Part shown: positions 49,190 through 62,537 of the stretch, piece after piece
How positions within the stretch are numbered: position 1 is the stretch's first letter
Layout of the letters: each line of letters opens with the position of its first letter
NCBI RefSeq assembly: GCF_029029525.1
Contig: NZ_JAKJSC010000006.1
Coordinates: 62,001-126,000, forward strand
Length of the DNA: 64,000 nucleotides
Direction: 5' to 3'
DNA from: Labilibaculum sp. DW002
GTDB lineage: Bacteria; Bacteroidota; Bacteroidia; Bacteroidales; Marinifilaceae
Made by a program: the position numbers and the translations under genes
The notes under the pieces: model-generated
What the model saw: only the letters and a program-made list of their open reading frames with translations
What the model was told of the DNA's origin: nothing
Database searches by the model: none

Positions 49190-50176
49190 ATGAATTTGAA
49201 GAAAACCAGTATAAGTGACATTAAGGCTCCTGTTAAAGAAGAGATGGATCAATTTGAAACCTACTTTAAGGATTCAATGAAAACCAAGGTACGCCTATTA
49301 AACGTCATTAACAGGTACATTATCAAACGAAAAGGCAAAGAAATAAGACCTATTTTAGTGTTCTTAAGCGCTAAGTTAGCTGGTACTATTAACGATTCTA
49401 CCTACACAGCTGCGGCCCTAACCCAGCTGCTACATACGGCAACTTTAATTCATGATGATGTAGTTGATGAAGCCTACGAAAGAAGAGGTTTTTTCTCTGT
49501 AAATGCCTTATGGAAAACAAAAGCTGCGGTATTGGTTGGTGATTTTCTTCTATCGAAAGGATTACTAATTGCTTTGGATAATAATGAATTTGGGCAATTA
49601 AAGGTCGTTTCTGATGCTGTTCGTGAAATGAGTGAAGGTGAGTTACTTCAGCTCGAAAAATCACGAAAGCTAAACATTACCGAAGAGGTTTATTTTGATA
49701 TTATTTATAAGAAAACGGCTAGTTTAATTGCCTCATGTACAGAATTGGGTGCTATTTCGGCTGGAGCAAGTGAAGAAGATCAGCAGAAGCTAAAACAATT
49801 TGGGTCACATCTTGGAATTGCTTTTCAAATGAAGGATGATTTATTTGATTACGAAAAACAAGGAACCATTGGGAAACCAACGGGTAATGATATCAAAGAA
49901 AAGAAGTTAACGCTTCCTTTGATTTATGCTTTAAGAAATATATCCGATAAGGATCGTCGTTGGGCTTTAAAAATTATCCGTAAACACAATAAAAACAAGG
50001 TAAAAGTTAACGAATTAATAAGTTTTGTTAAAGATAATGGAGGTATTGATTATACCAGTCAGAAAATGATTGAATACAAACAAAAAGCAATGAATATCTT
50101 ACATGAATTTCCAACTTCAGAAGCTAGAGAAGCATTAATTAATCTGGTTGATTATACCATTTCAAGAAACAAGTAA
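49190..50176 (+). CDS. Polyprenyl diphosphate synthase
   Basis: 328-residue trans-prenyltransferase (octaprenyl/heptaprenyl diphosphate synthase type) that builds the side chain of menaquinone. Aspartate-rich motif one is LIHDDVVDEAYERRG and motif two FQMKDDLFDYEKQGTIGKPTGND; GKEIRPILVFLSAKL binds the homoallylic substrate. The start is the ATG at 49190; a TTG nine bases earlier lies in the -7 promoter box and cannot be used. Chain length cannot be deduced with certainty. Confidence 0.93.
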   Translation: MNLKKTSISDIKAPVKEEMDQFETYFKDSMKTKVRLLNVINRYIIKRKGKEIRPILVFLSAKLAGTINDSTYTAAALTQLLHTATLIHDDVVDEAYERRGFFSVNALWKTKAAVLVGDFLLSKGLLIALDNNEFGQLKVVSDAVREMSEGELLQLEKSRKLNITEEVYFDIIYKKTASLIASCTELGAISAGASEEDQQKLKQFGSHLGIAFQMKDDLFDYEKQGTIGKPTGNDIKEKKLTLPLIYALRNISDKDRRWALKIIRKHNKNKVKVNELISFVKDNGGIDYTSQKMIEYKQKAMNILHEFPTSEAREALINLVDYTISRNK

Positions 50177-50181
50177 ACAGC

Positions 50182-52089
50182 TTATTGCAAAGGTAACTCT
50201 ACAAAAAATACACTTCCCTTTTCTACCGTACTTTCAACATAAATTTTCCCGTTATTCTGATCTACAAATTCTTTGCACAGAATTAGTCCCAAACCTGTTC
50301 CTGATTCTTCCTCAGTACCCATTCTGGTATAATTCGTGTCAATTCTAAAAAGTCTCTTCTGATTTTCGGCACTTATTCCAATACCATTATCTTCTATACT
50401 AAGGATAGCTTTGGATTGATTGTTCCTTATTTTTATTTTCACTTCACCACCAGGTCTGCTAAATTTCAAAGCATTAGAGTAAAGGTTGCGGATTACTGTA
50501 TCAATCATATACTCATCGGCAAATGCCATACTTCCATTGATAATATCAACACTTACCGCTATGTTCTTTTTATCAGCTTTTACTTTGTGCAGCAAAATAT
50601 TCGAAGTAACTATTTTTTGCAAATCGATTTGTTTTGGGTTAAGACTAATCTTACCCATTTGGGACCTACCCCATTCCAAAAGATTATTTAAAAGCTTAAA
50701 TTCTTGTGATGCTGAAGAATGAATGATTTCTGATGACTCGGCAATCTGTGCCTTCGACATCTCATTGCAATGAAGATATAGATTTTTTGCTATTGGCAAC
50801 AAGGCATTAAAGGGATTCTTTAAATCATGAGCAATAATTGAGAAAAACTTATCCTTAGTTTTAATCGCATCGTTTAAAGCTATTTCAGTTCTTTTTCGAA
50901 CACTAATATCTCTTGCAATTGCCATTAATGTTTCGCTCTCTCCTTCTGCATTAAACTCCGGAATTAATTGCCATTCAAAGTAGCGAATCTCATCATCAAG
51001 AGTTAAAGTAAAGTCAACACAATGCTGCTGTTTACTTTCAAAGGCTAAATTCATTTCTTGCTCCCAGAACTCACACATATCTGTTGGGAATCCCATGTCG
51101 AAATGTGTTTTCCCAATAAAAGCTTCTGGTTTTATATTCAGAACGGTATTGGAAGCAGAGTTAACAAAAATATGCTTATGATCTCTATCGAAACGCATAA
51201 TTAAATCGGGAGCATTTTCTACTAAGGTTCTAAAACGTTCCTCGCTCTCACTTAATTTATGCTCTGCAATTTTTCTTTTTTCAATATTTCTTATGGCAAC
51301 AAAATAGATTTTTGTATTCGCAAAACGATTAATATTGGCGCTTACCTCAACGGGAATTCTCTTACCACATTTACGAACTAAATTGGTTTCGAAAATTGCT
51401 GTTCCACTAATATCCATTTCATTCTTTCTCACAGTAAAATCTTCAGAATCAATAGGATCATCTATATCATTAACATTTAATTGAGCCAATTCCTTTTCCG
51501 AATAACCCAACATTTTACACAAGCGAGAACTAAATTCAATTAATTGACCTTTTTCATCATGAACAAGAAAAGCATCTCCCGCCGATTCAAATGTGTTTTT
51601 ATAAAATTCTTCTCTTTGCCCAACCCGATCAACCAAATGGTAATAACTAGAAATATCTTTACTCTGAACAATAATTCTTTCAACAGCACCATTTTTATTT
51701 AGTACCGGAGAAATGTATTTTTCTTCAAATTTTATTTTACTATTCTCCATGTATGATTTCAAAAAATGATCAGGCGCATTGCTCTCAATCACCTTCTCAA
51801 TCGTACATTCTTCACATGGCTTGTTTATATCATAAAAAACATTATAACACTTCTTTCCAATTAGCTCATTCCTTTGCATATTGGTTCCTTGTAAACGCTT
51901 ATCATTTACTTCCACCAAAGTATAGTTCGTGTCTATTACTGACACTGAATCATTAGCGTCATTTATTGAGATTCGATCAAGAAATTCCTCTGTAATAAAC
52001 TCTTGTGGAATCAGTCCACGTAATCTTTCTGCTTCGGTTTCCAGTTCTTGAATTCTCTTTTTTAGCAGATGGTGGGATTCGGTGTTCAT
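50182..52089 (-). CDS. Soluble multi-PAS histidine kinase
   Basis: 635-residue cytoplasmic histidine kinase without a transmembrane segment. Three PAS domains occupy about 35-150, 160-270 and 280-395. The first contains KKCYNVFYDINKPCEECTI, a Cys-rich PAS type that may bind a metal or sense redox. The kinase core has FFSIIAHDLKNPFNALLPI (His near 420), VIRNLYSNALKFS, IEDNGIGIS and GTGLGLILCKEF. It converges on the polyprenyl synthase gene with only five bases between them. No partner regulator is adjacent. Confidence 0.92.
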   Translation of the reverse strand: MNTESHHLLKKRIQELETEAERLRGLIPQEFITEEFLDRISINDANDSVSVIDTNYTLVEVNDKRLQGTNMQRNELIGKKCYNVFYDINKPCEECTIEKVIESNAPDHFLKSYMENSKIKFEEKYISPVLNKNGAVERIIVQSKDISSYYHLVDRVGQREEFYKNTFESAGDAFLVHDEKGQLIEFSSRLCKMLGYSEKELAQLNVNDIDDPIDSEDFTVRKNEMDISGTAIFETNLVRKCGKRIPVEVSANINRFANTKIYFVAIRNIEKRKIAEHKLSESEERFRTLVENAPDLIMRFDRDHKHIFVNSASNTVLNIKPEAFIGKTHFDMGFPTDMCEFWEQEMNLAFESKQQHCVDFTLTLDDEIRYFEWQLIPEFNAEGESETLMAIARDISVRKRTEIALNDAIKTKDKFFSIIAHDLKNPFNALLPIAKNLYLHCNEMSKAQIAESSEIIHSSASQEFKLLNNLLEWGRSQMGKISLNPKQIDLQKIVTSNILLHKVKADKKNIAVSVDIINGSMAFADEYMIDTVIRNLYSNALKFSRPGGEVKIKIRNNQSKAILSIEDNGIGISAENQKRLFRIDTNYTRMGTEEESGTGLGLILCKEFVDQNNGKIYVESTVEKGSVFFVELPLQ

Positions 52090-52146
52090 GAAAGTGTTAA
52101 CAATTTAATTGCGGTGTTAAATAAATCTATCGCAAGTAAATAAAAA

Positions 52147-52170
52147 AAAGCCGGAAAATATCCGACTTTT
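52147..52170 (-). terminator. deoC terminator
   Basis: AAAGCCGGA / TCCGACTTT stem with one mismatch, 20 bases after the deoC stop, followed by a T-run on the minus strand. Confidence 0.82.
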
Positions 52171-52190
52171 AGCTTAATTATTAATCTCTT

Positions 52191-53090
52191 TTAAAAATAT
52201 TTAATGTCTTTCTTTTCACCTTTCTCAATAAAATGAATTTCAGACAAAATATTGTTGGCTAAACTAGATGCTCCAATTCGCAAATATTCATTGTTCAACC
52301 ATTCTTCTCCTAAATTGTTTTTCGATACTGCAAAAAACTCGATGGCATCCTTTCCTGTTGAAATTCCTCCTGCAGGTTTAAATCCGACCATTCTTCCTGT
52401 CTTCTCGAAATACTCAGTAATTGCCTCAGTCATAATATAGGCAGCTTCTAAAGTTGCATTTACAGGAACTTTTCCTGTTGATGTCTTGATAAAATCAGCT
52501 CCAGCCTCCATAGCAATAATAGATGCTGTTCTAATATTCTCCGCTGTCTTAAGCTCTCCTGTTTCAAGAATTACTTTTAAATGTGCATTACCACAAGCTT
52601 CTTTCTGAATAGCAATTTCATCAAATACAGTTTGATAATGTCCTTCAAGAAAAGCGCCTATTGATATAACAATGTCAATATCGTTAGCTCCCTTTTCAAC
52701 AGCCATTTTACATTCCAATGCTTTAACTTCAACGTATGATTGAGAAGATGGGAAAACACCTGCTACAGAAGCAATTCTAACGCCCTCAGCTTTTAAGTTT
52801 TCATTTAATGTAGGTACTTGGTATGGATATACACAAATAGCGGCCACATTTGGCATGTCAAAATCATTCTGGAAGTTATTTACATTGTCAGCAAAACTTT
52901 TAGCCTTTGCATGTGTGTCTGTAGAGTTCAATGTCGTTAAATCTATGAAAGAAAAATTCTTTTTAAGATTCTCAACTGTGTACAAAGATTTAAAATCTTT
53001 ATCCAGAATTGATTTGACATTTTCTTTAACTTTTGCATCGCTAATCTTAAGATCGTAAGATTTTAAGATCTCTAAAATGTCTCTCTTCAT
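52191..53090 (-). CDS. deoC: Deoxyribose-phosphate aldolase
   Basis: Class I aldolase cleaving 2-deoxyribose-5-phosphate to glyceraldehyde-3-phosphate and acetaldehyde; 299 residues, somewhat longer than E. coli DeoC (259). The Schiff-base Lys is in GADFIKTSTGK, the second Lys in MVGFKPAGGIST, and ANDIDIVISIGAFLEG and IDLTTLNSTDTHAK are family segments. It runs alone, with no deoxynucleoside phosphorylase nearby. Confidence 0.94.
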   Translation of the reverse strand: MKRDILEILKSYDLKISDAKVKENVKSILDKDFKSLYTVENLKKNFSFIDLTTLNSTDTHAKAKSFADNVNNFQNDFDMPNVAAICVYPYQVPTLNENLKAEGVRIASVAGVFPSSQSYVEVKALECKMAVEKGANDIDIVISIGAFLEGHYQTVFDEIAIQKEACGNAHLKVILETGELKTAENIRTASIIAMEAGADFIKTSTGKVPVNATLEAAYIMTEAITEYFEKTGRMVGFKPAGGISTGKDAIEFFAVSKNNLGEEWLNNEYLRIGASSLANNILSEIHFIEKGEKKDIKYF

Positions 53091-53426
53091 CCTTCTAAAT
53101 TTTTAATTAGGATGGAGCGCCAAATCCTACATTTGTCGCTACACAGTGTAAATAAATAATAATAAACCAGTTGCGGACGTTTCCGCTGATTTTTCCATAG
53201 GTACAAAAGATTGCTCTCTTGTATATCTTAATACTTAAAGCACAAAACTAATTTATTTTTTACTCTTCCCCTATTTCTATATCATTAATTTATTTGAACT
53301 TAAGTTAAAAAAAGCCAAAGTCATCGTGATGATGACCCTGGCTTACTATCTAACTAAAAACGTAATTCTTTATTGTTTTGAAAATTTATACTTATAAATC
53401 TTGATCTGATTAATAGATATATTTTT
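53091..53426. other. Intergenic region between lipoprotein operon and deoC
   Basis: 336 bp with no gene. It holds the terminator of the lipoprotein operon (53313-53343) and the deoC promoter region; a TAGTTTTG box on the minus strand at 53250-53243 is a possible -7 element, 150 bases from the deoC start. Nothing else is recognised. Confidence 0.4.
53313..53343 (-). terminator. Terminator of the lipoprotein operon
   Basis: AGCCA-GTCATC / GATGAC-TGGCT interrupted stem followed by seven T residues on the minus strand, 84 bases after the last stop. Confidence 0.82.
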
Positions 53427-54815
53427 CTAATTACTATAGGTCTCGTCAAAAAGAACTATTGGCTTAACAATTTGATATTCCTTTTCAAATCCGCCTAAAT
53501 TTTTCTTTGCTATTTTAACCTTCGCATTTATTCTTGCATCTAGTCCCATGCTCATTTCAACAGATCCATCAACCTTTGTATTCAAAAAGCTTCCATGTAT
53601 CTCCGTATTAACGTAAGGAACCATATCAATAGTTATTCCGTTAACTCCGCAAATTTTAGCTTTAGTTCGAGGGAATATTTCAGCTCTTAAATTCGCATTT
53701 ACTTCACCCATAAACTGAGGTGTATAAAGCTCTTTATTAAATTCAAACTCATTTATGGCACTCCAACCTTTTTTCCTCTTGTATTTTGCCCCAAATTTAG
53801 AACTGATACTTGCATTGAAACCTGCTGTACATTGCAAAAACCCATTACTCTCAACTTTATATGCAGCCATAATATCTGTATCAACTGTTATTGCCAATAC
53901 ACAAGCACCAACATAATAGATAAATGTTCTTTTAAATACATTATTCATTAATTTTATCTCGTCTTCCCGTGTATAAGATTTGGCATATCTCATTAAAAAA
54001 TTGGCCTCTGCAAAAACATGTGGACTTACTGAAAATTCAAACTTTCTTAGTTTAAACCATTTCACTTTTGTTTTAAGACTAAAATCGGCACCATAATTAA
54101 TTTCTCCACTGGTGAGATAAATTCCACTTTTTTCAGAATAAGATTCTCCAGTTTCCTCATTAGTTATCTGTTCACTCTTCTCAAACAGAGTATAATTTTC
54201 AATTTTTTTACTAAAATTGATAGAGATTGTTTTTTTTGTATTTCCAAACATTTCAACCCCATCTATCTGTTCGTCATTAAAAACAGAACGAACAATTCTC
54301 CCTTCAGGCATATGATAAATCACACGCGCCGGATGAATTTTATTTCCATCTCTCAGTGCTTCATTTATCTCTTGTATGGTAGATGCTGTTTTAAGATCAA
54401 CGTCTTCAGTCATATCCGATACCAATTCAAAATCAGCATCTCTAAAAACTTCTTCAAAATCTGTTTCTTCAGTATGTACATTAATTATGTCGCCAATCGT
54501 ATCAACCTTGGCAACTTTTCTTAAAACTGCAAGCGTATCTAAATCAACAGATAAAATTGATGTATTCTCAATTTTATACTCTGCCATTTCAACCGATTCT
54601 AATGACATTTGCATCACTCCTGTTTCCTCGTCATAAGCCATTCCTTCATCTCCATTGGAATTGGCTAATTTACTATTATGAAGCAATAAAACATTCTCAT
54701 TAAGTTTAGCTGAAATTGCATTAACATTCTCTAAACTCGGATCAGAAAATTCATCTTTTTCACTACATGATACCAAAAGAGTAACCCCCAATAAAAAACA
54801 TAACTTTTTCAACAT
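53427..54815 (-). CDS. Lipoprotein of unknown function in PBP-C13 operon
   Basis: 462-residue exported lipoprotein (MLKKLCFLLGVTLLVSC, Cys17). I do not recognise a domain. Residues ~20-215 are acidic and mixed alpha/beta (e.g. VDLDTLAVLRKVAKVDTIGD). Residues ~215-462 are rich in alternating polar/hydrophobic strands (ISINFSKKIENYTLFEKSE, FEFSVSPHVFAEANFLMRYA, NANLRAEIFPRTKAKICG, VEMSMGLDARINAKVKIA), suggesting a large beta structure. One hydrophobic stretch (TFIYYVGACVLAITV) is near 310. It is the last gene of the four-lipoprotein operon, two bases after the 123-residue gene, so translation is probably coupled. It could be a substrate, scaffold or effector of the C13 peptidase; this is speculation. 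Confidence 0.7.
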   Translation of the reverse strand: MLKKLCFLLGVTLLVSCSEKDEFSDPSLENVNAISAKLNENVLLLHNSKLANSNGDEGMAYDEETGVMQMSLESVEMAEYKIENTSILSVDLDTLAVLRKVAKVDTIGDIINVHTEETDFEEVFRDADFELVSDMTEDVDLKTASTIQEINEALRDGNKIHPARVIYHMPEGRIVRSVFNDEQIDGVEMFGNTKKTISINFSKKIENYTLFEKSEQITNEETGESYSEKSGIYLTSGEINYGADFSLKTKVKWFKLRKFEFSVSPHVFAEANFLMRYAKSYTREDEIKLMNNVFKRTFIYYVGACVLAITVDTDIMAAYKVESNGFLQCTAGFNASISSKFGAKYKRKKGWSAINEFEFNKELYTPQFMGEVNANLRAEIFPRTKAKICGVNGITIDMVPYVNTEIHGSFLNTKVDGSVEMSMGLDARINAKVKIAKKNLGGFEKEYQIVKPIVLFDETYSN

Positions 54816-54817
54816 AA

Positions 54818-55189
54818 CTAATCATATTTAAGAATAACTGAAATATTTGTAATAACACCCTTTTGTAGTGGTTTTTCCATTGAAGAATTGCTAGTAGAAT
54901 TCGTTAATTCTTCTCCCTTTTCCACATTAAAAAAATAATAAACCTCTTGTAGATCGGTAAACAAACAAGTTCCTGTACTGTCGGTAGTCGCAATCATATT
55001 TTCCTCGCTATCCTCTATATTATACCAAGCATCGTAGGTTGTAAATAAAGTTACCGAAGCATCTTCTACCAAAACTCCATTTTCATCAAGTACAGTAAAC
55101 TGCAATTGAGGTGGGCTATCGACATAATTTGTTTTTTCACAAGCACTAAATGCAATAAGTGCAATTAATGCAATAACGATTTTCTTCAT
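54818..55189 (-). CDS. Small Ig-like lipoprotein in PBP-C13 operon
   Basis: 123-residue lipoprotein (signal ending LIAFSAC, Cys17). The mature part QLQFTVLDENGVLVEDASVTLFTTYDAW... with TTDSTGTCLFTDLQEVYYFFNVEKG has the layout of a carboxypeptidase-regulatory/SpaA-like beta-sandwich (xxDxxGxPVxxAxVxLF...TDxxGxxxFxxL). An Asn/Ser-rich loop (TNSTSNSS) follows. It is 14 bp downstream of the C13 fusion gene and two bases upstream of the 462-residue gene. Likely a structural partner at the envelope. Confidence 0.72.
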   Translation of the reverse strand: MKKIVIALIALIAFSACEKTNYVDSPPQLQFTVLDENGVLVEDASVTLFTTYDAWYNIEDSEENMIATTDSTGTCLFTDLQEVYYFFNVEKGEELTNSTSNSSMEKPLQKGVITNISVILKYD

Positions 55190-55203
55190 AACTAGTAAAT
55201 GTA

Positions 55204-57300
55204 TTATGGATTAAAAAATTCAGAAATCTGTAAATGAGGCATATTCCCATAATGTTCTTCATTATAAACCCCAACATGAGAACCATTTACCTTCTGGTTT
55301 AGATTTGTATACAGATCAGAAAACGAAATATCAGGGCTGTTTATCACCTCGCTCAAAAAATGGCTTGAAAAATTATCTGACAGCCAAACATTTAAATAAT
55401 TAGAGTATTTAATTGCCTTTGAAACCTCAAACTTATTTGCTGCAGTTATGCAAAGTATAGGAGATTCAAAATCAATCACCTCTCCCATTAATCCGCTATA
55501 GCACGATTCGAGAATAATTAACATGCGACGAAAGTTTCCCTTATTATTAAACGAGCTAAGACCTGCCTTAAATTCTTCTGGACTAATAAACTGTTGGTTA
55601 ATTGCATCGATCCTGAGACCTTCGGGGAAACCATGTCCTGCATTATAGAAAAGAATGTTAGACTGTTTAGTGGCCTCCAGAACTATTGGGGTATCTTTAC
55701 TTATATTCCCTGATAAAATATCAAAAATCATATCAGCATTTATATCTTTTAGAAAATAATCAATCTCGATATTTTCATATAAGTTATTGCCTTCGTTTTC
55801 AACCATAATAGAACCCTGATTTTTGTTTTTATCGTGAAATGCAATATCATCTTCTAGAATAAGAACAATATCATCATCAGAGACTCCATTTGCTTTTAAG
55901 TGCTGATACATTGCCAATACATCAGCTTGGTGGCGATAATTTTTCCAGCTTTTAGATGATGCAATCAGTAAAACTTTTAAATCCTTTTTTTCAGGTAAAT
56001 CGTAAGATTCTCCCGATTGTAAATCATCTATTTGACTGGCGTAAGTTCTCCAGGATGCAGATGTATTAGAGTATCTTTTATCTCCTTTATCTGAATAGTA
56101 ATTCAGACTAACAAAATTGCCCAAATTAACTTGCCAATGAGCATAAGTCGAATACAAAATATCAAGGAAAAAATCATTATCATATTCCAAAGAACTACTA
56201 GCGCCCATTATATCTGGCGATAATCCACTTTTAATATTTGCTAGAGTTTCGACAATTGACTGATCATCCCAAAATGCAGACTCACCTCTGCCGCTTACAA
56301 CTTTCTTAATGGAATCGTTTAATTTTTCACCACCTTCTCCTCCCGATTTTTCGATACCATAAGCCAATAGCATTAGTGCATCGTAAAGCTGAGCAGATGC
56401 CAGAAGAGGTTTTTCCCCGTATTTAATTTCATATTCTATTTCAAATCCACTTTTCGGATCAGGAATACAGACTGTTCCTTCAATCCCCTCTGCGTCTTCA
56501 CCCAATATATCAAGTAATTGAGGCATATAGGCCAAATCAGAAAACAAAAACTGACAATTATTCGAATCACTTTTCCAATTTTTTGCCATTTCCACGGCCT
56601 GATCTATATTTGAAGGAATACACACAATTAAATCAGGCTTAGAACTGAGGGCCGATTGCATTTCATTGCTTATATCTGTTTGTTCGGAATTATATTGTTC
56701 AACTCTTGTAACCTCTATGCCAATTTCTGCAGCATAAAATCCAAACCAGTTGTAAAATGACATGCCATACTGATCGTCTCCTGTTACAAGAGCTATGGAT
56801 TTAACATTCTTTTCTTTTGCTAATAAAACCAGGTTTTTACATTGAGAGATATCTGATTCTACAAATCTCCATATATAATCTTTACCCACATAAGCAGTGG
56901 TTATTTCACTGGATGAAGCTGTTGGAATAAAAAGAGGTTTCTTATTTTTTATAAAATAAGGTATTGATTTAAAAGCGTTAGCAGAAGTAAATGGGCCAAT
57001 AGCAGCAATAAAACTGGTATCCTTTGCTATCCTTTCTGCTAAATCATCAATATCTTCGGCCTGAGAATCAAACCATTCCAAATCAATTTTTTTACCTGCT
57101 ACGCCGTTATTTTCATTTATTGTTGTCTGAACCCACTCCAGGCTTCTCTCCCAATTGCTTTGCATAGATCCTGAAAGAGGCATAAATACGGCGACTTTAA
57201 ACGAAGATTCTAATGTATTTAAGTCCTCATCTATATCCTCTTTATTTTCGCACGAAAAACAAAGCATTAGAATTAATAATAAGTAGATATAATGTTTCAT
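55204..57300 (-). CDS. Lipoprotein: Leu/Ile/Val-type binding domain fused to C13 legumain-like peptidase
   Basis: 698-residue lipoprotein (LMLCFSC, Cys17). Residues ~34-400 form a type-I periplasmic binding protein of the LivJ class: VAVFMPLSGSMQSNWERSL, AAIGPFTSANAF, FIPTASSSEITT, YIWRFVESDISQ, SIALVTGDDQYGMSF, LYDALMLLAYGI. Residues ~440-640 form a caspase-like peptidase of family C13. WKNYRHQADVLAMYQHL and DDDIVLILEDDIA match the legumain/GPI8 core (NYRHQADxxxxYQxL, DExIxxMxxDDIA). The catalytic His556 is in FYNAGHG and Cys600 in LIILESCYSG, 44 residues apart, close to legumain. C13 enzymes cut after Asn or Asp, or act as transamidases. A binding module on the same chain suggests ligand-controlled proteolysis. 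No permease or ATPase is encoded nearby. Confidence 0.88.
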   Translation of the reverse strand: MKHYIYLLLILMLCFSCENKEDIDEDLNTLESSFKVAVFMPLSGSMQSNWERSLEWVQTTINENNGVAGKKIDLEWFDSQAEDIDDLAERIAKDTSFIAAIGPFTSANAFKSIPYFIKNKKPLFIPTASSSEITTAYVGKDYIWRFVESDISQCKNLVLLAKEKNVKSIALVTGDDQYGMSFYNWFGFYAAEIGIEVTRVEQYNSEQTDISNEMQSALSSKPDLIVCIPSNIDQAVEMAKNWKSDSNNCQFLFSDLAYMPQLLDILGEDAEGIEGTVCIPDPKSGFEIEYEIKYGEKPLLASAQLYDALMLLAYGIEKSGGEGGEKLNDSIKKVVSGRGESAFWDDQSIVETLANIKSGLSPDIMGASSSLEYDNDFFLDILYSTYAHWQVNLGNFVSLNYYSDKGDKRYSNTSASWRTYASQIDDLQSGESYDLPEKKDLKVLLIASSKSWKNYRHQADVLAMYQHLKANGVSDDDIVLILEDDIAFHDKNKNQGSIMVENEGNNLYENIEIDYFLKDINADMIFDILSGNISKDTPIVLEATKQSNILFYNAGHGFPEGLRIDAINQQFISPEEFKAGLSSFNNKGNFRRMLIILESCYSGLMGEVIDFESPILCITAANKFEVSKAIKYSNYLNVWLSDNFSSHFLSEVINSPDISFSDLYTNLNQKVNGSHVGVYNEEHYGNMPHLQISEFFNP

Positions 57301-57327
57301 AGGTGTTAAGATAAATGGTGTTTAGTA

Positions 57328-58311
57328 TTATTTCTGTTCCAGATATTCATTCTCCTTTCTGATAGCTTCATCCTTTCCATTTGTAACTATACCATTCAAG
57401 CTATTCTCAAAATAAGAATTAAGAAGAAATCCAGTATATGAGGATTCTAAATTATAAACTGTATGTCCGGTAGAATAACCTTCATCCTGATACTTTTGAA
57501 TACAGTTTAAAACAAGATTGTCGATATTCTTTGTTATGGAACCAATTATAGATTTGGGTGCATAATGCGACTGATCTGTATCAATCCCAATTGCAAGAGT
57601 TTTTGGATTTTCACGAATTACATTGAAAATTCCTAAATTTGAACCTCCTGCTGCTGCTACAACCAAATCGACATCATCAATTAAACTTCTAGTTAAATTT
57701 TCAGCCTCTTCCATCATGGAAAAGCCACTCACTCCCGAATCTAAATAATTAAGAGAAACATGTTTCCCTCCATTGGCTAAAAACCCATCGGAAAAGCCAT
57801 TATAACAATCCTTTAAGGTAGGCAGTGGCATGCCGGCAATAAATGCTGCGGTATCGCATAAATTAATTTCGGCCGCAGTTAATCCAGCTAAATATGCAGC
57901 ACCATAGAACGAAAAGCCTACAGACCAAATATCAGCATCAGTGCTCCCATCAAGTAATAGAATATCCTCATTTAAAAATTCATTTGAGTGCTTATCCATA
58001 ATGTCGGCATAGGCAACATCTCCTAGAATTAATAGTCTATTATAATCTGTGGTAATTATACTATCAATCATAAACTCTACTTCGCTAATATTTTCGGGGA
58101 ATAAATGATTTACAGATAGCTGATAGTCATATTTTGCCTGAACCACTCCTTTAAAAATATTATCAACATAAGAATCTCCAAGACCTCCTATCGAATAAAT
58201 AACGTCGATATTTGATGTAATTTCTGTTTCATCTTTTGAACAACTAAATACAATAACAGAAACTATACTTAGTATAATAATCTGTTTTAGCAATTTGATA
58301 TTAACACTCAT
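57328..58311 (-). CDS. BMP/PnrA-family substrate-binding lipoprotein
   Basis: 327-residue lipoprotein (IVFSC, Cys24) of the basic membrane protein / PnrA type, a family that usually binds nucleosides for ABC import. The fold is visible in IDVIYSIGGLGDSYVDNIFKGV, AFIAGMPLPTLKDCYNGFSDGF, DLVVAAAGGSNLGIFNVI and AIGIDTDQSHYAPKSIIGS. It is the first gene of the operon, 27 bp before the binding-protein/C13 fusion. No matching permease or ATPase genes follow, so it may act as an orphan sensor rather than part of an importer. Ligand unknown. Confidence 0.85.
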   Translation of the reverse strand: MSVNIKLLKQIIILSIVSVIVFSCSKDETEITSNIDVIYSIGGLGDSYVDNIFKGVVQAKYDYQLSVNHLFPENISEVEFMIDSIITTDYNRLLILGDVAYADIMDKHSNEFLNEDILLLDGSTDADIWSVGFSFYGAAYLAGLTAAEINLCDTAAFIAGMPLPTLKDCYNGFSDGFLANGGKHVSLNYLDSGVSGFSMMEEAENLTRSLIDDVDLVVAAAGGSNLGIFNVIRENPKTLAIGIDTDQSHYAPKSIIGSITKNIDNLVLNCIQKYQDEGYSTGHTVYNLESSYTGFLLNSYFENSLNGIVTNGKDEAIRKENEYLEQK

Positions 58312-58366
58312 ATTAATTATTGTTTAGTGTTTAAATGTGCGTGTCTTTGGGGTAAAATTTACAATA

Positions 58367-58374
58367 CAAATCTA
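58367..58374 (-). promoter_or_regulatory. -7 box of lipoprotein operon
   Basis: TAGATTTG on the minus strand matches TAnnTTTG, giving a leader of about 50 bases before the BMP gene. No clear -33 TTG at normal spacing, which would fit an activated promoter. Confidence 0.4.
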
Positions 58375-58581
58375 ATTTACGAGGTGAAAATATTGTTGAC
58401 TTAGGCTCATAAAAATTAAACATACAGAACACTGGCAACATGCATATTAAAGCAAATGTAGTAGAAGTGACGTACCCCCTTTTTGGACGTTTTTATAAAA
58501 CAGAAGGCGTTTTTTAAGTAAACCTGTCAGGTTTTAAGCGTGGTGGTTTTTGTGAGTATAGCTTGGAAGTTGACTATACTT

Positions 58582-58671
58582 ATAATTTTAAATTATCTAC
58601 CCCTCGTAATCCCGGAAGTTTTCGGGACGGGTACTCCTCCTTCCTTCGACTAAGCTCTAGAAACGAGGAGG
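58582..58671. repeat. Structured element with competing hairpins
   Basis: From left: an AT palindrome ATAATTT-T-AAATTAT (58582-58596), a CCCGGAA...TTCGGG hairpin (58611-58626), and ACGAGGAGG (58663-58671), which can pair with CCTCGT (58602-58607) or with CTCCTC (58634-58639). The two pairings exclude each other. It is GC-richer than its surroundings and lies just downstream of the TPR-LuxR stop, so it could be that gene's terminator or a dispersed palindromic repeat. Confidence 0.5.
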
Positions 58672-58699
58672 AAAAATTTAAGATGTAAGGATAAAAAAT

Positions 58700-60412
58700 C
58701 TAAAATTGCTGAAAGAAGCTGTTTAATTCTGTTTCTTCGGGCACATTTAGTTTTTTCCGCAAGCGGTGTCTGGCGGTTTCAACAGAACGGAGAGAGGTGC
58801 CGTTAATGGCTGCAATCTCTTTGCTGCTGAGGTTGAGCTTTAAAAAGGCTGACAAGCGTAGTTCCTTCGAGCTTAATGTAGAATGGTCTTTTGCCAGATT
58901 TTTATAAAAATCGATATGAACTTCTTTGAAACTCTTTTCAAAATCGCTCCAAACCTCATTCTTTTTGCTCACTCTAATTTCAGAAATCAATTTTTGGATT
59001 GCCTCCTTTAAGTCCGCTTTTTTAAGGTACTCCATAGCTCCTACTCGCTGCGATATCTCATTTAGTAAATTATCATTCTGAACAAAACGCAAAGCATTCA
59101 TTGTAAGTGTTTTGTTATGATGAATAATGTTATTTTGCAAAATGGCATTCTTATTTTTCATCTGATTTTGCTTTTGCAAAAACACCATTTTTCGCAATCG
59201 ATTAATCACAATGGCTACGATCAATAAAGTAATGGTAATCAGAAAAATCCCAATAAATAAAGTCAACCTAAAATGCCCTTTATGTCTTTCTTCTGAAAGT
59301 TGAGCTTCCTTTAACTCGTAATTGTATTTTGTTGTTAAGGCAGTAACTTCTTTATCTAAGTAACTCTTAAATAGGCTTTTCTCTACAAAGTATACTTTTT
59401 CCAGGTATTTTTTAGCCAAATGATAATCGCCTATAGAGTCGTACGAATCGGATAAATATTGATAAGTCTTGCGATAAATTTGAGGATACTCCTCTCCTTT
59501 TCTTATGCCTAATAATTGCTTGCCTGTTGTTATGGCTTTCTGAAATTGCCCTTTTTTCTGATAAGCACAGGTAAGATTATTACTAACGTTCACATAATTA
59601 GGGTAATCATCAAGCTCTTTAAAAGTTTGTGCAGCACGTCTCAAGTAAAAAACTGCAGTATCCGGCTCCAATCTATAATGCATCATAAAATGCCCCAACT
59701 GGTTGTAAGAAGATGCTTTTAAACTCTTTAAGTTATACTGCTCGGCAATTTGGGCAGATAGGCTGGTGTATTTAAATATTGAATCAAGGCGATTAAAATT
59801 TGGTATGTTGTATTCACTTTCACCTGTTATACATTCTTCATAAAAGGAAGCCAAGCGTCCATATAAATTGCACCTATTACGAACCGATAAGCCACTTTCT
59901 TTTAGTAAATCGTAAAGTAAATCGAAGCCAATTTTAAACTGTTTTTTTACCCGATGTGCTTCGGTTATTTTAAGTATGCAATAATGCTTCAGATCTTTAT
60001 TTTCAAATTTTTTTAATAATTCTAAAGCTTCTAGTAGTTCCGGTATTCCTTCATCAACATTAGAGTTTGATGACTTTATACTACCCAAAAGCATTAATAT
60101 TTTTGCCCTAACCACTATATTCTCAGGATAAGTGTGGTTAATCTCTTCCAAACAATTCGTAAGAATTAGTATTGTAGTATCTATGCTTTGTTGTTGACAT
60201 TTTGCATTGGCCTCCAAAAACTCAATTCTAATTTTTTGGAGATCGTTTAAGTCAGGGAGTTTTTTAAGATACTCAATACTATTTAAACAAGAATCGAAAT
60301 TGGTATGCAGGTACTGTTCTCCCCTAGCAAATATCGAATCAAAGTCCGTATTAGTTTGTGATAAAGAGAAAAATGGAAGAAAAAATAGAGATAGGTATAA
60401 GCTTAGCTTCAT
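58700..60412 (-). CDS. Membrane-anchored TPR protein with LuxR-type DNA-binding domain
   Basis: 570-residue protein. A signal peptide (LYLSLFFLPFFSLSQ) leads into ~330 residues of tetratricopeptide-like helices outside the cytoplasm (e.g. SSYNQLGHFMMHY, NVSNNLTCAYQKKGQFQKAI, TYQYLSDSYDSIGDYHLA). One transmembrane helix lies near 379-401 (LFIGIFLITITLLIVAIVI). A coiled coil follows, then a C-terminal LuxR/GerE helix-turn-helix (~505-560: LSSKELRLSAFLKLNLSSKEIA, SLRSVETARHRLRKKL). This one-component layout is common in Bacteroidota; DNA binding is by the cytoplasmic end. It lies directly upstream of the lipoprotein operon on the same strand and is the best candidate regulator. Confidence 0.9.
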   Translation of the reverse strand: MKLSLYLSLFFLPFFSLSQTNTDFDSIFARGEQYLHTNFDSCLNSIEYLKKLPDLNDLQKIRIEFLEANAKCQQQSIDTTILILTNCLEEINHTYPENIVVRAKILMLLGSIKSSNSNVDEGIPELLEALELLKKFENKDLKHYCILKITEAHRVKKQFKIGFDLLYDLLKESGLSVRNRCNLYGRLASFYEECITGESEYNIPNFNRLDSIFKYTSLSAQIAEQYNLKSLKASSYNQLGHFMMHYRLEPDTAVFYLRRAAQTFKELDDYPNYVNVSNNLTCAYQKKGQFQKAITTGKQLLGIRKGEEYPQIYRKTYQYLSDSYDSIGDYHLAKKYLEKVYFVEKSLFKSYLDKEVTALTTKYNYELKEAQLSEERHKGHFRLTLFIGIFLITITLLIVAIVINRLRKMVFLQKQNQMKNKNAILQNNIIHHNKTLTMNALRFVQNDNLLNEISQRVGAMEYLKKADLKEAIQKLISEIRVSKKNEVWSDFEKSFKEVHIDFYKNLAKDHSTLSSKELRLSAFLKLNLSSKEIAAINGTSLRSVETARHRLRKKLNVPEETELNSFFQQF

Positions 60413-60579
60413 TTAGATGCTTTATGATAGAATGATCATATTAATTTGAAAACATGAACACAAAACTAATAAATATATTGATTAATTTGTGCTTCAAATG
60501 ATTTGATATACCTCTATTAAATCAGATCTCAATAAAACATTATTTTAGCACTCTAACCACACTCCAGGTGCAAGGATAA

Positions 60580-60915
60580 TTACTTGAGTTTATCATTTTT
60601 TAGGTGACGCGTCTTATCTCTCTGTGATTTCTTCTCTATATTTTTTTGAAAAGCTTCATTTAAATCGACTCCCGTCTGATTTGCCAAACACATTAAAACC
60701 CATAAAACATCGGCCATTTCATCTGCTAAATCAACTTTTTTATCACTTTCCTTGAAAGATTGCTCGCCATATTTACGAGAAACAATACGAGCCACCTCAC
60801 CTACTTCTTCGGTTAAAATAGCCATATTGGTTAGTTCATTAAAATAGCGAACGCCATATTTTTTGATCCATTGATCGACCATTTCTTGAGCTTCCTTTAT
60901 TCCGATCTGATTCAT
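60580..60915 (-). CDS. MazG-like nucleotide pyrophosphohydrolase
   Basis: 111-residue all-alpha NTP pyrophosphohydrolase. The metal motif EEVGEVARIVSRKYG (ExxE) is followed by DLADEMADVLWVLMCLANQTG (ExxD), as in single-domain MazG/iMazG proteins. It would hydrolyse non-canonical nucleoside triphosphates. It is three bases after dtd, the conserved Bacteroidota order. Confidence 0.9.
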   Translation of the reverse strand: MNQIGIKEAQEMVDQWIKKYGVRYFNELTNMAILTEEVGEVARIVSRKYGEQSFKESDKKVDLADEMADVLWVLMCLANQTGVDLNEAFQKNIEKKSQRDKTRHLKNDKLK

Positions 60916-60918
60916 AGC

Positions 60919-61371
60919 TTATTCTTTGTTTTTAGTATCCATTACAATGGTAACTGGACCATCGTTAGTTAAAGAAACCTCCATTTCGGCACCAAACATT
61001 CCAGTTTCGACTTTTTTTCCAGATACCTTTTCCAAACAGGCAACAAAATTTTCATAAAGAGGTATTGAAACCTCTGGTTTTGCTGCTGCGATATATGATG
61101 GTCGATTTCCCTTTTTAGTTTTAGCATGCAGCGTAAACTGACTGATTGCCAGAATGTCTCCATCTACATCTATCAAAGATTTATTCATTACCTCATCTTC
61201 ATCATCGAAAATTCGAAGATTACAGATTTTTTTACTGAGCCATTCTGCATCATCCAAGCAATCTTCATTCTCAATACCCACCAAAACCATCAATCCTTTT
61301 TTAATTTGACCAATAATTTCAGAATCCACTCGCACTGACGCTTCCGTAACTCTCTGAATCACAACTCGCAT
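60919..61371 (-). CDS. dtd: D-aminoacyl-tRNA deacylase
   Basis: 150-residue DTD that removes D-amino acids (and glycine) mischarged on tRNA. The two active-site signatures are present: SQFTLHAKTKKGNRPS near residue 78-93 and the Gly-cis-Pro motif NDGPVTIVMDT near 135-145. MRVVIQRVTEASVRV is the usual N-terminus, fixing the start. Co-transcribed with the MazG-like gene. Confidence 0.96.
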   Translation of the reverse strand: MRVVIQRVTEASVRVDSEIIGQIKKGLMVLVGIENEDCLDDAEWLSKKICNLRIFDDEDEVMNKSLIDVDGDILAISQFTLHAKTKKGNRPSYIAAAKPEVSIPLYENFVACLEKVSGKKVETGMFGAEMEVSLTNDGPVTIVMDTKNKE

Positions 61372-61553
61372 AACTAAATATTTATTAAAATAACATTTTG
61401 AAATTCTCTCAAATATAAGCTTTTCCCTTTGATACCTAACGGATAACTAACTTGGGAAAAGCTTTCAAAGCACCCTATTGAAATTCAATCTAAATTAAGA
61501 TAATTCGCAAATAATAATCATATTTGTATATCAAAAAAACAAGCAAGACCAAT

Positions 61554-62537
61554 ATGTTATATTTTATCAGTTCATCGCATCAACCAGCTTTCAATTTAGC
61601 AACGGAGGAATATCTTTTAAAAAATTATGAAGAGGATTTCTTTTTTTTGTATTCCAACTGCCCTGCTCTAATCGTTGGAAAACATCAAAATACCTTAGCT
61701 GAAATTAACCTGGAAAAAACAGAGGAAGAAAACATTCCAGTTGTGAGAAGGCTCTCGGGAGGTGGAACGGTTTTTCATGATGAAGGAAATTTAAATTACT
61801 GCTTTATCAAGAAAGGTGAAAAAGGCAAGTTGGTAGATTTTCAGAAATACAGTCAGCCAATTATTGATACCCTACAAAAGCTAAGCGTAAATGCAAAATT
61901 TGAAGGGAAAAGTGATCTGACAATTGATGGAATGAAGTTCTCAGGCAATGCATCTCATATTTACAGAAGCAAAGTAATGCAACATGGCACCATGCTTTTT
62001 TCAAGCGATTTGAACCGCTTAAATAGCCTCTTAAAGGTAAATCCACTCAAGTTTAAGGACAGAGGTGTTCGATCGATTAGAAGTCGTGTAACTAACATCA
62101 GTGATCACCTATCCTCTCCTCTATCGCTCGATGCTTTTAGTAAACTGATTATTGAGGAGCTTCGATCCAATTTTCCTGATGCCAAAGCATTTGAACTAAA
62201 TAATTCTGATAAAGAAAAGATAGAAGTGCTCATGACAGAAAAATATAATAATTGGGAATGGAACTATGGCTACTCTCCTAATTATAGTTTTGAGAAACTT
62301 TCGAATTTTCCTGGCGGTAATATTTTAGAGGTAAAACTTAAAATTGAGAAAGGACTGATTCAAAAAGTTGAACTTGATGGTAATTGCATCCAATTTGATC
62401 AAATAAAATCCTTTGAAAACTTACTTCAGGACAACAAACACAACAAAAACACTGTTTTAAAGACACTTAAAGGACTCGATTTAGATGAATACTTTAATAA
62501 TTTAGATGAAAATCAGTTAATTAATGCACTTTTTTAG
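61554..62537 (+). CDS. lplA: Lipoate-protein ligase
   Basis: 327-residue ligase attaching free lipoate to E2 and GcvH proteins. The catalytic loop is VVRRLSGGGTVFHDEGNLNYCFI; LTIDGMKFSGNAS holds the lysine region, and the C-terminal accessory domain starts near residue 240. The start is the ATG at 61554 (MLYFISSSHQPAFNLATEEYLL); the longer frame would need a TTG inside a likely promoter box (ATATTTG at 61520-61526). Single gene. Confidence 0.92.
   Translation: MLYFISSSHQPAFNLATEEYLLKNYEEDFFFLYSNCPALIVGKHQNTLAEINLEKTEEENIPVVRRLSGGGTVFHDEGNLNYCFIKKGEKGKLVDFQKYSQPIIDTLQKLSVNAKFEGKSDLTIDGMKFSGNASHIYRSKVMQHGTMLFSSDLNRLNSLLKVNPLKFKDRGVRSIRSRVTNISDHLSSPLSLDAFSKLIIEELRSNFPDAKAFELNNSDKEKIEVLMTEKYNNWEWNYGYSPNYSFEKLSNFPGGNILEVKLKIEKGLIQKVELDGNCIQFDQIKSFENLLQDNKHNKNTVLKTLKGLDLDEYFNNLDENQLINALF

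What the first reader, a model, noticed from the sequence alone, without database searches (positions are those of the whole stretch)
55204..57300. Lipoprotein fusing a LivJ-type binding domain to a legumain/GPI8-like C13 peptidase
One chain carries a lipobox, a complete type-I periplasmic binding domain (~34-400) and a C13 caspase-fold peptidase (~440-640) with His556 (FYNAGHG) and Cys600 (LIILESCYSG). Segments NYRHQADVLAMYQHL and DDDIVLILEDDIA closely follow eukaryotic legumain. C13 peptidases are well known in eukaryotes and sparse in bacteria. I know of no described bacterial system in which a small-molecule receptor domain is fused directly to one. The simplest reading is ligand-gated proteolysis or transpeptidation at the envelope.
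Basis: partly seen in the sequence, partly recalled or inferred. Interest (0 to 1): 0.85.

Follow-up and report, generated by a model that had tools for sequence, protein, structure and literature searches.

The report
Sensor-fused legumain-like surface protease family
A bacterial envelope protein that joins a small-molecule sensor to a legumain-type protein cutter is real, is shared by many distantly related bacteria and some archaea, and usually comes with a second sensor protein, but what it cuts and senses has not been tested.

Summary
Window 55204-57300 (- strand) encodes 698 aa with a type-I binding domain (Peripla_BP_6, E 8e-29) and a C13 peptidase (E 7e-45). The AlphaFold model (pLDDT 92.7) superposes on human legumain (255 residues, 1.6 A) and LivK (337, 2.3 A). 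It is no one-off: a genome scan found 388 relatives, the best 80 from Bacteroidota, Myxococcota and other Deltaproteobacteria, Actinomycetota, Chloroflexota, Fibrobacter, Treponema and methanogens. Both catalytic residues are kept in 79 of 81 aligned members. In gut Bacteroidales the pair closes operons of variable lipoproteins, including MACPF proteins (13 of 87). The cassette is accessory: a same-species genome lacks it, and near-identical copies sit in different genera. Best reading: an Asn/Asp-directed surface peptidase controlled by two binding proteins (the fused domain probably for an alpha-amino acid) that processes surface lipoproteins. Gating, ligand and substrate are inference. My searches of open-licence papers listed none describing this architecture. 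New variant of a known kind; interest 0.74.

The parts
55204..57300 (-). Fusion protein: probable lipid-anchor Cys17, type-I binding domain ~33-400, linker ~401-438, C13 peptidase 439-698 (His556, Cys600)
57328..58311 (-). PnrA/Bmp-type binding lipoprotein, conserved partner (PF02608 E 1.8e-26)
   Evidence: same contiguous run in 73 of 87 loci
54818..55189 (-). 123-aa lipoprotein with weak Ig/CarboxypepD_reg-like similarity (all below curated cut-offs); 14 nt downstream of the fusion
   Evidence: 96.7% identical to the G417 copy, dS 0.40
53427..54815 (-). 462-aa lipoprotein, no Pfam family over cut-off; relatives in L032, L054, L097 and L103, all near the pair
   Evidence: AlphaFold failed (pLDDT 39)
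53312..53344 (-). terminator-like stem (14 pairs) plus T run after the last gene of the unit
   Evidence: consensus match only; 5 terminator-like sites found, 3.5 expected
58700..60412 (-). TPR protein with C-terminal HTH-like region (HTH matches below cut-off), 388 nt upstream; absent with the block in G438 but with flank-like dS, so an older neighbour rather than part of the exchanged cassette
53251..60627 (.). 7.4-kb block missing in the same-species genome G438 (about 90 bp in its place); blastn boundaries, not base-exact

Best explanation
The gene encodes a surface-anchored, Asn/Asp-directed cysteine peptidase of the legumain type whose activity or reach is set by an N-terminal Venus-flytrap binding domain and by a co-encoded PnrA-type binding lipoprotein. 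Steps. (1) Both proteins are exported, lipidated and, in Bacteroidota, shown on the cell surface (predicted). (2) The fused binding domain captures a small ligand, most likely an alpha-amino acid or a close analogue (inferred from conserved residues). (3) Binding changes the relation of the two domains, or of the fusion to its PnrA-type partner, and so switches or positions the C13 active site (inferred; the least supported step). (4) The C13 domain cleaves after Asn/Asp in nearby surface lipoproteins, of which the variable genes of the same operon are the first candidates, so maturing or shedding them (inferred). The catalytic machinery and the pairing are supported by sequence conservation; ligand, gating and substrate are not shown.
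For: Fold and dyad. S1 pocket: legumain Arg44, His45 and Ser216 (named in PMC4357240, passages read) correspond, by my reading of the alignment, to R456 (81 of 81), H457 (78 of 81) and S627 (81 of 81); the residue two before Cys is E or D in 81 of 81. H, C, R456, S627 and E/D598 all intact: 79 of 81. Binding site: S/T106, S/T129, D150, Y178 and D255 all kept in 72 of 81, at least four in 78 of 81; I recall these five as the amino-acid site of class C GPCR ectodomains. Among the best fold matches of this half are Leu-, Val- and pyroglutamate-bound binding proteins. Pairing: partner in the same contiguous run in 73 of 87 loci, directly upstream 68 times and downstream 5 times, often overlapping by 4-26 nt; 63 of 68 Bacteroidota loci (my count). 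Distances of fusion and partner correlate at r = 0.93 over 64 pairs, 0 of 2000 permutations as high. Surface: two or more acidic residues just after the lipobox Cys in 39 of 60 fusions and 36 of 50 partners with a recognised lipobox, against 56 of 211 other ORFs. In the window C-E-N-K-E-D (fusion), C-S-K-D-E (partner) and C-S-E-K-D-E (462-aa protein) hold the K-(D/E)2 export motif of Capnocytophaga, as quoted in PMC6222051 (passages read). Precedent: surface C11 clan-CD peptidases of Bacteroidales activate toxins and release surface proteins (PMC11169675, PMC9308784, passages read). Linker 18-31 residues in 81 members.
Against: No assay of any member was found. The position I equate with legumain Asp231 is Ser633 here and D in only 33 of 81, so the Asn/Asp preference may differ. 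The amino-acid assignment rests on recalled residues. Class C GPCR chains do appear among the PDB sequence hits of this half, but at E 0.11-0.76, where unrelated urocanate hydratases appear too, and several good fold matches bind hydroxybenzoates or phenylpyruvate. No Asn/Asp in the linker region is kept in more than 50 of 81, so autocatalytic release has no visible site. Outside Bacteroidota the partner is often missing: 10 of 19 loci of the scan have it, 4 of 11 archaeal regions and 1 of 6 Myxococcota regions of a later sample. Three of 88 members have lost a catalytic residue: L034, L093, L110. The window fusion's own lipobox did not fit my pattern. Shared descent alone will raise the fusion-partner correlation. 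The co-encoded lipoproteins vary so much that no common cleavage site is evident; I did not search for one systematically.
Confidence: 0.42

Rival explanations
1. Scavenging rather than signalling: the C13 domain digests exogenous protein at the surface and the two binding domains capture released amino acids or nucleosides, or simply hold the enzyme near its food.
For: Both partners are of solute-binding families; fold neighbours of the binding half include amino-acid-bound transport proteins. In L034 a TonB-dependent receptor, confirmed by Pfam, is adjacent.
Against: No ABC permease or TonB receptor among the 7 window genes scanned with Pfam; most neighbours in other loci were not scanned for transporters. 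A selective legumain-type pocket is a poor digestive enzyme. The binding domain is fused and the linker length is held.
Confidence: 0.22
2. Activator of co-encoded pore-formers: in a gut Bacteroidales clade the pair senses a competitor or host cue and cleaves the MACPF lipoproteins of its own operon to activate or release them.
For: MACPF-cluster genes lie in the same run in 13 of 87 loci, three or more copies in 10 of these loci, and within seven genes in 16 of 87; 7 of the 44 cluster members were scanned and all 7 exceed the Pfam MACPF cut-off. A surface clan-CD peptidase activates a two-component pore-former in Bacteroidales (PMC11169675, passages read).
Against: The window has no MACPF among the genes scanned, and most loci carry other lipoproteins or none of these families. 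Nine of the 11 such loci on the tree fall in one 13-row clade. No cleavage site was identified. The known activators are C11 enzymes.
Confidence: 0.2
3. Transpeptidase: like GPI8 or the plant ligases, the C13 domain transfers proteins onto an amine acceptor (lipid, glycan or peptide) at the surface.
For: The fold matches PIGK/GPI8 (8imx Z 35.4) and peptide ligases (VyPAL2 7f5j Z 35.9) almost as well as legumain; like GPI8 (recalled) there is no LSAM prodomain, as the chain ends with the peptidase.
Against: No acceptor or sorting signal was recognised, and I did not search for one systematically; a fold match does not separate hydrolase from ligase.
Confidence: 0.1
4. The peptidase half is mostly a scaffold or decoy.
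For: Some members have lost catalytic residues (L034 both, L093 His, L110 Cys).
Against: 79 of 81 keep the whole set; omega of the C13 half is 0.088.
Confidence: 0.04

Closest known systems
Legumain / asparaginyl endopeptidase (MEROPS C13, PF01650)
   Same: Fold over the whole peptidase domain (Z 37.3, 1.6 A), His-Cys dyad, Arg/His/Ser of the S1 pocket
   Different: Legumain is a zymogen with a C-terminal prodomain (PMC4357240); here the peptidase follows a binding domain, probably on a lipid anchor, without that prodomain
GPI8/PIGK (GPI transamidase)
   Same: C13 fold (8imx Z 35.4)
   Different: A lone binding-domain fusion; no transamidase subunit was recognised among the scanned neighbours
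LivJ/LivK-type amino-acid binding proteins (PF13458) and class C GPCR ectodomains
   Same: Fold (3td9 Z 37.2) and putative alpha-amino-acid site
   Different: Fused to a peptidase; no ABC permease among the 7 scanned window genes
PnrA/Bmp lipoproteins (PF02608)
   Same: The partner gene matches at E 1.8e-26; PDB hits Lbp and BmpD
   Different: Encoded as a pair with the fusion
C11 surface peptidases of Bacteroidales (fragipain, DpnA/DpnB)
   Same: Clan CD, surface lipoproteins; activate toxins and release surface proteins (passages)
   Different: Other family, cleave after Arg or Lys, with an activation loop; no sensor domain (recalled)
Small-molecule-gated clan CD domains of the C80 family (recalled)
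   Same: Idea of ligand control over a clan CD peptidase
   Different: Control site lies inside the peptidase and serves toxin autoprocessing; here it would be a separate Venus-flytrap domain

Membership tests
Peptidase family C13 (legumain) | Profile match over the whole domain | tested here: met
   PF01650 E 7.4e-45, profile positions 3-250 of 258
Peptidase family C13 (legumain) | Clan CD fold as in legumain | tested here: met
   7fqk Z 37.3, rmsd 1.6 A, 255 aligned, model pLDDT 92.7
Peptidase family C13 (legumain) | His-Cys dyad | tested here: met
   His556 and Cys600; 80 of 81 each
Peptidase family C13 (legumain) | S1 pocket Arg44/His45/Ser216/Asp231 | tested here: inconclusive
   R456, H457 and S627 conserved; the Asp231 position (aligned by eye) is Ser633 here and D in 33 of 81
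Peptidase family C13 (legumain) | Cleavage after Asn/Asp | not testable with these tools
   needs enzyme assay
Legumain proper (zymogen with LSAM prodomain) | C-terminal prodomain after the peptidase | tested here: not met
   Chain ends at residue 698, the end of the match to mature legumain
Type-I solute-binding protein, Peripla_BP_6 | Profile and fold | tested here: met
   E 8.2e-29; 3td9 Z 37.2, 2.3 A over 337 residues
Type-I solute-binding protein, Peripla_BP_6 | Ligand bound | not testable with these tools
   only residue conservation
Type-I solute-binding protein, Peripla_BP_6 | Delivers to an ABC permease encoded nearby | tested here: not met
   None among the 7 window genes scanned with Pfam, 50182-60412; genes further out not scanned
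PnrA/Bmp family (partner gene) | Profile match | tested here: met
   PF02608 E 1.8e-26; over the cut-off also in L106, L109, L043, L044, L031 and L032; L035 and L037 partners gave no Pfam hit and are assigned by alignment only
Bacteroidales MACPF toxin loci (BSAP kind) | MACPF gene in the unit | tested here: not met
   No MACPF match in the 7 window genes scanned; present in 13 of 87 related loci
Bacteroidota surface lipoprotein | Lipobox followed by an acidic export signal | tested here: inconclusive
   Cys17 followed by E-N-K-E-D holds K-(D/E)2 as defined in passages of PMC6222051, but the preceding residues did not fit my lipobox pattern; C in 74 of 81 members

The most novel reading that the evidence does not exclude
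An old prokaryotic surface sensor-protease-effector system: a two-receptor (amino-acid-type and PnrA-type) legumain module that, on sensing a small molecule, cleaves and deploys whatever lipoprotein effectors its operon carries. In gut Bacteroidales these include MACPF pore-formers, giving an extracellular, mobile analogue of caspase-controlled pore formation.
Probability: 0.17. Interest if true: 0.92.

Novelty: new variant of a known kind. Interest (0 to 1): 0.74.

Why it matters
Legumain and GPI8 are studied mainly in eukaryotes. Here is a large prokaryotic family, in bacteria and in methanogenic archaea, in which the same catalytic domain is physically joined to a receptor-type domain and often paired with a second one. 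If the binding domain controls the peptidase, it would be a directly testable ligand-gated surface protease, useful for understanding how gut Bacteroidales mature surface proteins, possibly pore-formers among them, and perhaps where the eukaryotic enzymes came from. Proteins, ligand panel and Cys mutant look straightforward to make, so the question can be taken to the bench.

Tried and rejected
Chance or mis-annotation of the fusion: rejected. A one-off chimera or assembly artefact: rejected. Virus or plasmid origin: 82 pattern matches in viral contigs, none encoding a relative; no match in phage records; PLSDB: 30 records match at under 60% identity, none over 80% of the query, and the 20 listed rows cover only the binding half; of the G402 cassette only a terminal stretch of about 100 bp matches 5 plasmid records, two of them annotated transposase there. 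A defence-system label: no PADLOC match for the three window proteins tested, one weak caspase match (4e-5) for L031. Autocatalytic split: no conserved Asn/Asp in the linker. Fold of the 462-aa neighbour: AlphaFold with four sequences gave pLDDT 39, not searched further. Rfam families in 50000-62000: none at gathering threshold. Bacteroides-type promoter pattern (recalled): 3 matches in the window, 4.1 expected. The phylum-wide sample found the full fusion in the own genome alone of 395, other matches listed covering the binding half; only two candidates per genome were scored there, so it undercounts. MACPF as a universal partner: rejected, 13 of 87 loci. PnrA partner as universal: rejected outside Bacteroidota. 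The hhalign comparison of neighbour families is dominated by short signal-peptide matches; I use only c3 with c5 (140 columns) and c7 with the MACPF N-terminus (119 columns). Three of 20 regions (L205-L207) gave no fusion ORF with my caller, probably because longer antisense frames displaced it; not followed up. Papers PMC2784779 and PMC12445089: passages read, nothing on a bacterial C13 fusion in them; PMC12853789: passages read, no C13 mentioned in them.
Full report
WHAT IS THERE. The window holds a 698-codon ORF on the minus strand at 55204-57300. Pfam places Peripla_BP_6 at residues 34-332 (E 8.2e-29) and Peptidase_C13 at 443-687 (E 7.4e-45). AlphaFold with an 81-member alignment gives a confident model (pLDDT 92.7, pTM 0.89; the N-terminal 30 residues and the linker at 401-430 are weaker). 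VIA-align superposes residues 438-698 on human legumain (7fqk, Z 37.3, 1.6 A, 255 residues) and 33-413 on Thermotoga LivK (3td9, Z 37.2, 2.3 A, 337 residues); GPI8/PIGK and plant ligases follow at Z 34-36.

SURROUNDINGS IN THE WINDOW. Upstream by 27 nt lies a PnrA/Bmp-type lipoprotein (57328-58311, PF02608 E 1.8e-26); 14 nt downstream a 123-aa lipoprotein; 2 nt further a 462-aa lipoprotein without a Pfam family over cut-off. A terminator-like stem follows at 53344-53312 (consensus only). A TPR protein with an HTH-like C-terminus lies 388 nt upstream of the PnrA-type gene on the same strand. The own genome has no other C13 match at E 0.001.

AN ACCESSORY CASSETTE. A genome of the same species, G438, matches the window at 91% up to 53250 and at 96% from 60628, with about 90 bp between: the 7.4-kb block is absent. 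Loss and gain cannot be told apart from this. G417, another genus of the family, has the block in the same place. There, synonymous divergence is 0.19 for the fusion, 0.24 for the PnrA-type gene, 0.40 and 0.73 for the two downstream lipoproteins, but 2.0 for the TPR gene and 1.1-2.1 for DeoC, dtd and MazG (high values are near saturation). So the pair and its downstream genes were probably exchanged more recently than the chromosomes diverged. Omega for the fusion is 0.10. A second example is sharper: a c5-lipoprotein/PnrA/fusion cassette is 99.4-100% identical in protein in G402, G398, G437 (two genera) and in L055, a Bacteroides metagenome bin, beside genes that look like transposases (not tested with Pfam, but the end of the cassette region matches plasmid records annotated transposase). 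In G398 the fusion is split into two frames. In the family survey 7 of 56 genomes have a strong match, 3 more a weak one. In the order survey 52 of 393 genomes match PF01650 at E 0.001, but only 7 do so at 1.8e-40 or better (8 hits, all in 700-782-aa frames); every other hit is at 6.9e-15 or weaker.

HOW WIDE. A scan of the genome-contig collection (84,980 species) with eight fusion proteins gave 463 candidate stretches, of which 388 encode relatives; the best 80 were kept, so statements by phylum concern those 80 only. In 79 of the 80 a fusion-length ORF was recovered (not in L081). Titles name Bacteroidota, Myxococcales and other Deltaproteobacteria, Acidimicrobiia, Leekyejoonella antrihumi, Coriobacteriaceae, Chloroflexi, Patescibacteria, Fibrobacter, Treponema, Methanoregula and Methanogenium. 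Most are metagenome bins, so single odd placements are weak. But of 150 genomes of the order of the Methanogenium bin, 16 have a C13 match and 15 have one below 1e-40 (17 hits, 16 of them in frames of 685 aa or more); six of these hits lie on five contigs of 2.5-3.2 Mb that look like whole chromosomes. In the phylum of the Myxococcales bin, 18 of 235 match, nine with a hit below 1e-25. On a tree of 81 members the window groups with environmental Bacteroidota, Myxococcota, archaea and others (19 rows), apart from a clade of 62 rows (59 Bacteroidota, 2 Fibrobacterota, 1 Spirochaetota), mostly host-associated by title (midpoint root, quick method).

CONSERVATION. In 81 aligned members His556 is kept in 80, Cys600 in 80, R456 in 81, H457 in 78, S627 in 81 and an acid at 598 in 81; H, C, R456, S627 and E/D598 together in 79. 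With the seven loci L031-L037 of the first alignment added, 3 of 88 have lost a catalytic residue: L034 (both), L093 (His), L110 (Cys). The binding half keeps S/T106, S/T129, D150, Y178 and D255 together in 72 of 81. I recall these as the alpha-amino-acid site of class C GPCR ectodomains; the correspondence rests on recalled residues, not on coordinates. Weak sequence hits to T1R and mGluR5 chains (E 0.11-0.76) are no better than those to unrelated urocanate hydratases. Fold neighbours include proteins bound to Leu, Val and pyroglutamate, but also to hydroxybenzoates and phenylpyruvate. SBP and C13 distances correlate at 0.83, as expected for long-joined halves, though shared descent alone would raise it. 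The linker from W417 to residue 443 is 18-31 residues.

THE PARTNER. A PnrA-type gene stands in the same contiguous same-strand run (gaps up to 300 nt) in 73 of 87 loci, directly upstream in 68 cases and directly downstream in 5, frequently with 4-26 nt of overlap. By my count from the maps and the labels that is 63 of 68 Bacteroidota loci and 10 of 19 others. Over 64 pairs with a full-length partner the two proteins' distances correlate at 0.93; none of 2000 permutations reaches it; shared descent contributes. In a later sample outside Bacteroidota, which took 11 of the 17 strong archaeal hits and 9 of 13 Myxococcota hits, the partner is adjacent in 4 of 11 archaeal regions (two regions are from one genome, and in L197 only part of the fusion is in frame) and in 1 of the 6 Myxococcota regions where my caller found a fusion (two of these six, L201 and L202, repeat the contigs of L049 and L045). 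The fusion is thus more conserved than the pair.

THE REST OF THE OPERON. In Bacteroidales the pair often closes operons of other lipoproteins. Over all 87 loci the same run holds MACPF-cluster genes in 13 (three or more copies in 10 of them), family c3 in 17, c5 in 14, c7 in 9, c11 (the window's 462-aa kind) in 4, c3 or c5 in 31; 43 of 87 have none of the seven neighbour families counted (some loci are cut by contig ends). Seven of the 44 members of the MACPF cluster were scanned with Pfam and all seven pass its cut-off. c3 and c5 are related by profile comparison over 140 columns, and c7 resembles the N-terminal part of the MACPF proteins over 119 columns. Acidic residues after the lipobox Cys, as in published surface export signals (PMC6222051, passages read; PMC5080379 seen only in a search listing), are common: 39 of 60 fusions, 36 of 50 partners and 32 of 39 MACPF proteins with a recognised lipobox, against 56 of 211 other ORFs.

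HOW IT PROBABLY WORKS. Shown by computation: a complete, conserved legumain-type active site joined to a conserved binding domain on an apparently exported chain, in Bacteroidota usually beside a second binding lipoprotein. Inferred: surface location; an amino-acid-like ligand; coupling of binding to catalysis; processing of nearby surface lipoproteins. The precedent that surface clan-CD peptidases of Bacteroidales activate toxins and release surface proteins (PMC11169675 and PMC9308784, passages read) makes the last step reasonable, but those are C11 enzymes acting after Arg or Lys. For the MACPF loci an activation role is attractive; for the window, without MACPF, it has no direct support.

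KNOWN OR NEW. C13 peptidases are tabulated for bacteria and archaea (PMC4357240, passages read). Nine literature searches were run, seven of them on this question; no listed title or abstract opening concerns a binding-protein/C13 fusion or a PnrA/C13 pair. The lists were capped (15 of 940, 15 of 20, 8 of 11), and the library holds open-licence papers only, so absence from print is not shown. I call it a new variant of a known kind: known domains, an apparently undescribed and widely conserved combination.

Noticed in passing
L034:7344-9557: Second fusion copy in G255 has lost both catalytic residues and sits beside a TonB-dependent receptor: a probable pseudoenzyme paralogue.
   Followed up: partly
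L172, L173, L176 and L055: c5-lipoprotein/PnrA/fusion cassette 99.4-100% identical across genera and beside transposase-like genes; in L176 the fusion is split in two frames.
   Followed up: partly
L200:4022-7386: In an archaeal locus the gene overlapping the fusion by 4 nt is not PnrA-like but a 406-aa protein whose best match is the fusion family itself.
   Followed up: no
L043:7479-9973: TPR-histidine kinase and LuxR-type response regulator directly upstream of the fusion/partner pair.
   Followed up: no
L031, L037, L068, L075, L091, L092, L115, L118, L119: MACPF-cluster lipoprotein genes, usually three of different length, in tandem before the pair: possibly a multi-component pore-former.
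   Followed up: partly
L121:321-938 and L085:2-349: These small c5 lipoproteins end in a CxxC...CxxC stretch that looks like a zinc ribbon, odd for a surface protein.
   Followed up: no
order survey: Many weak C13 matches (E 7e-15 to 1e-3) in the window's order, probably other clan CD peptidases.
   Followed up: no
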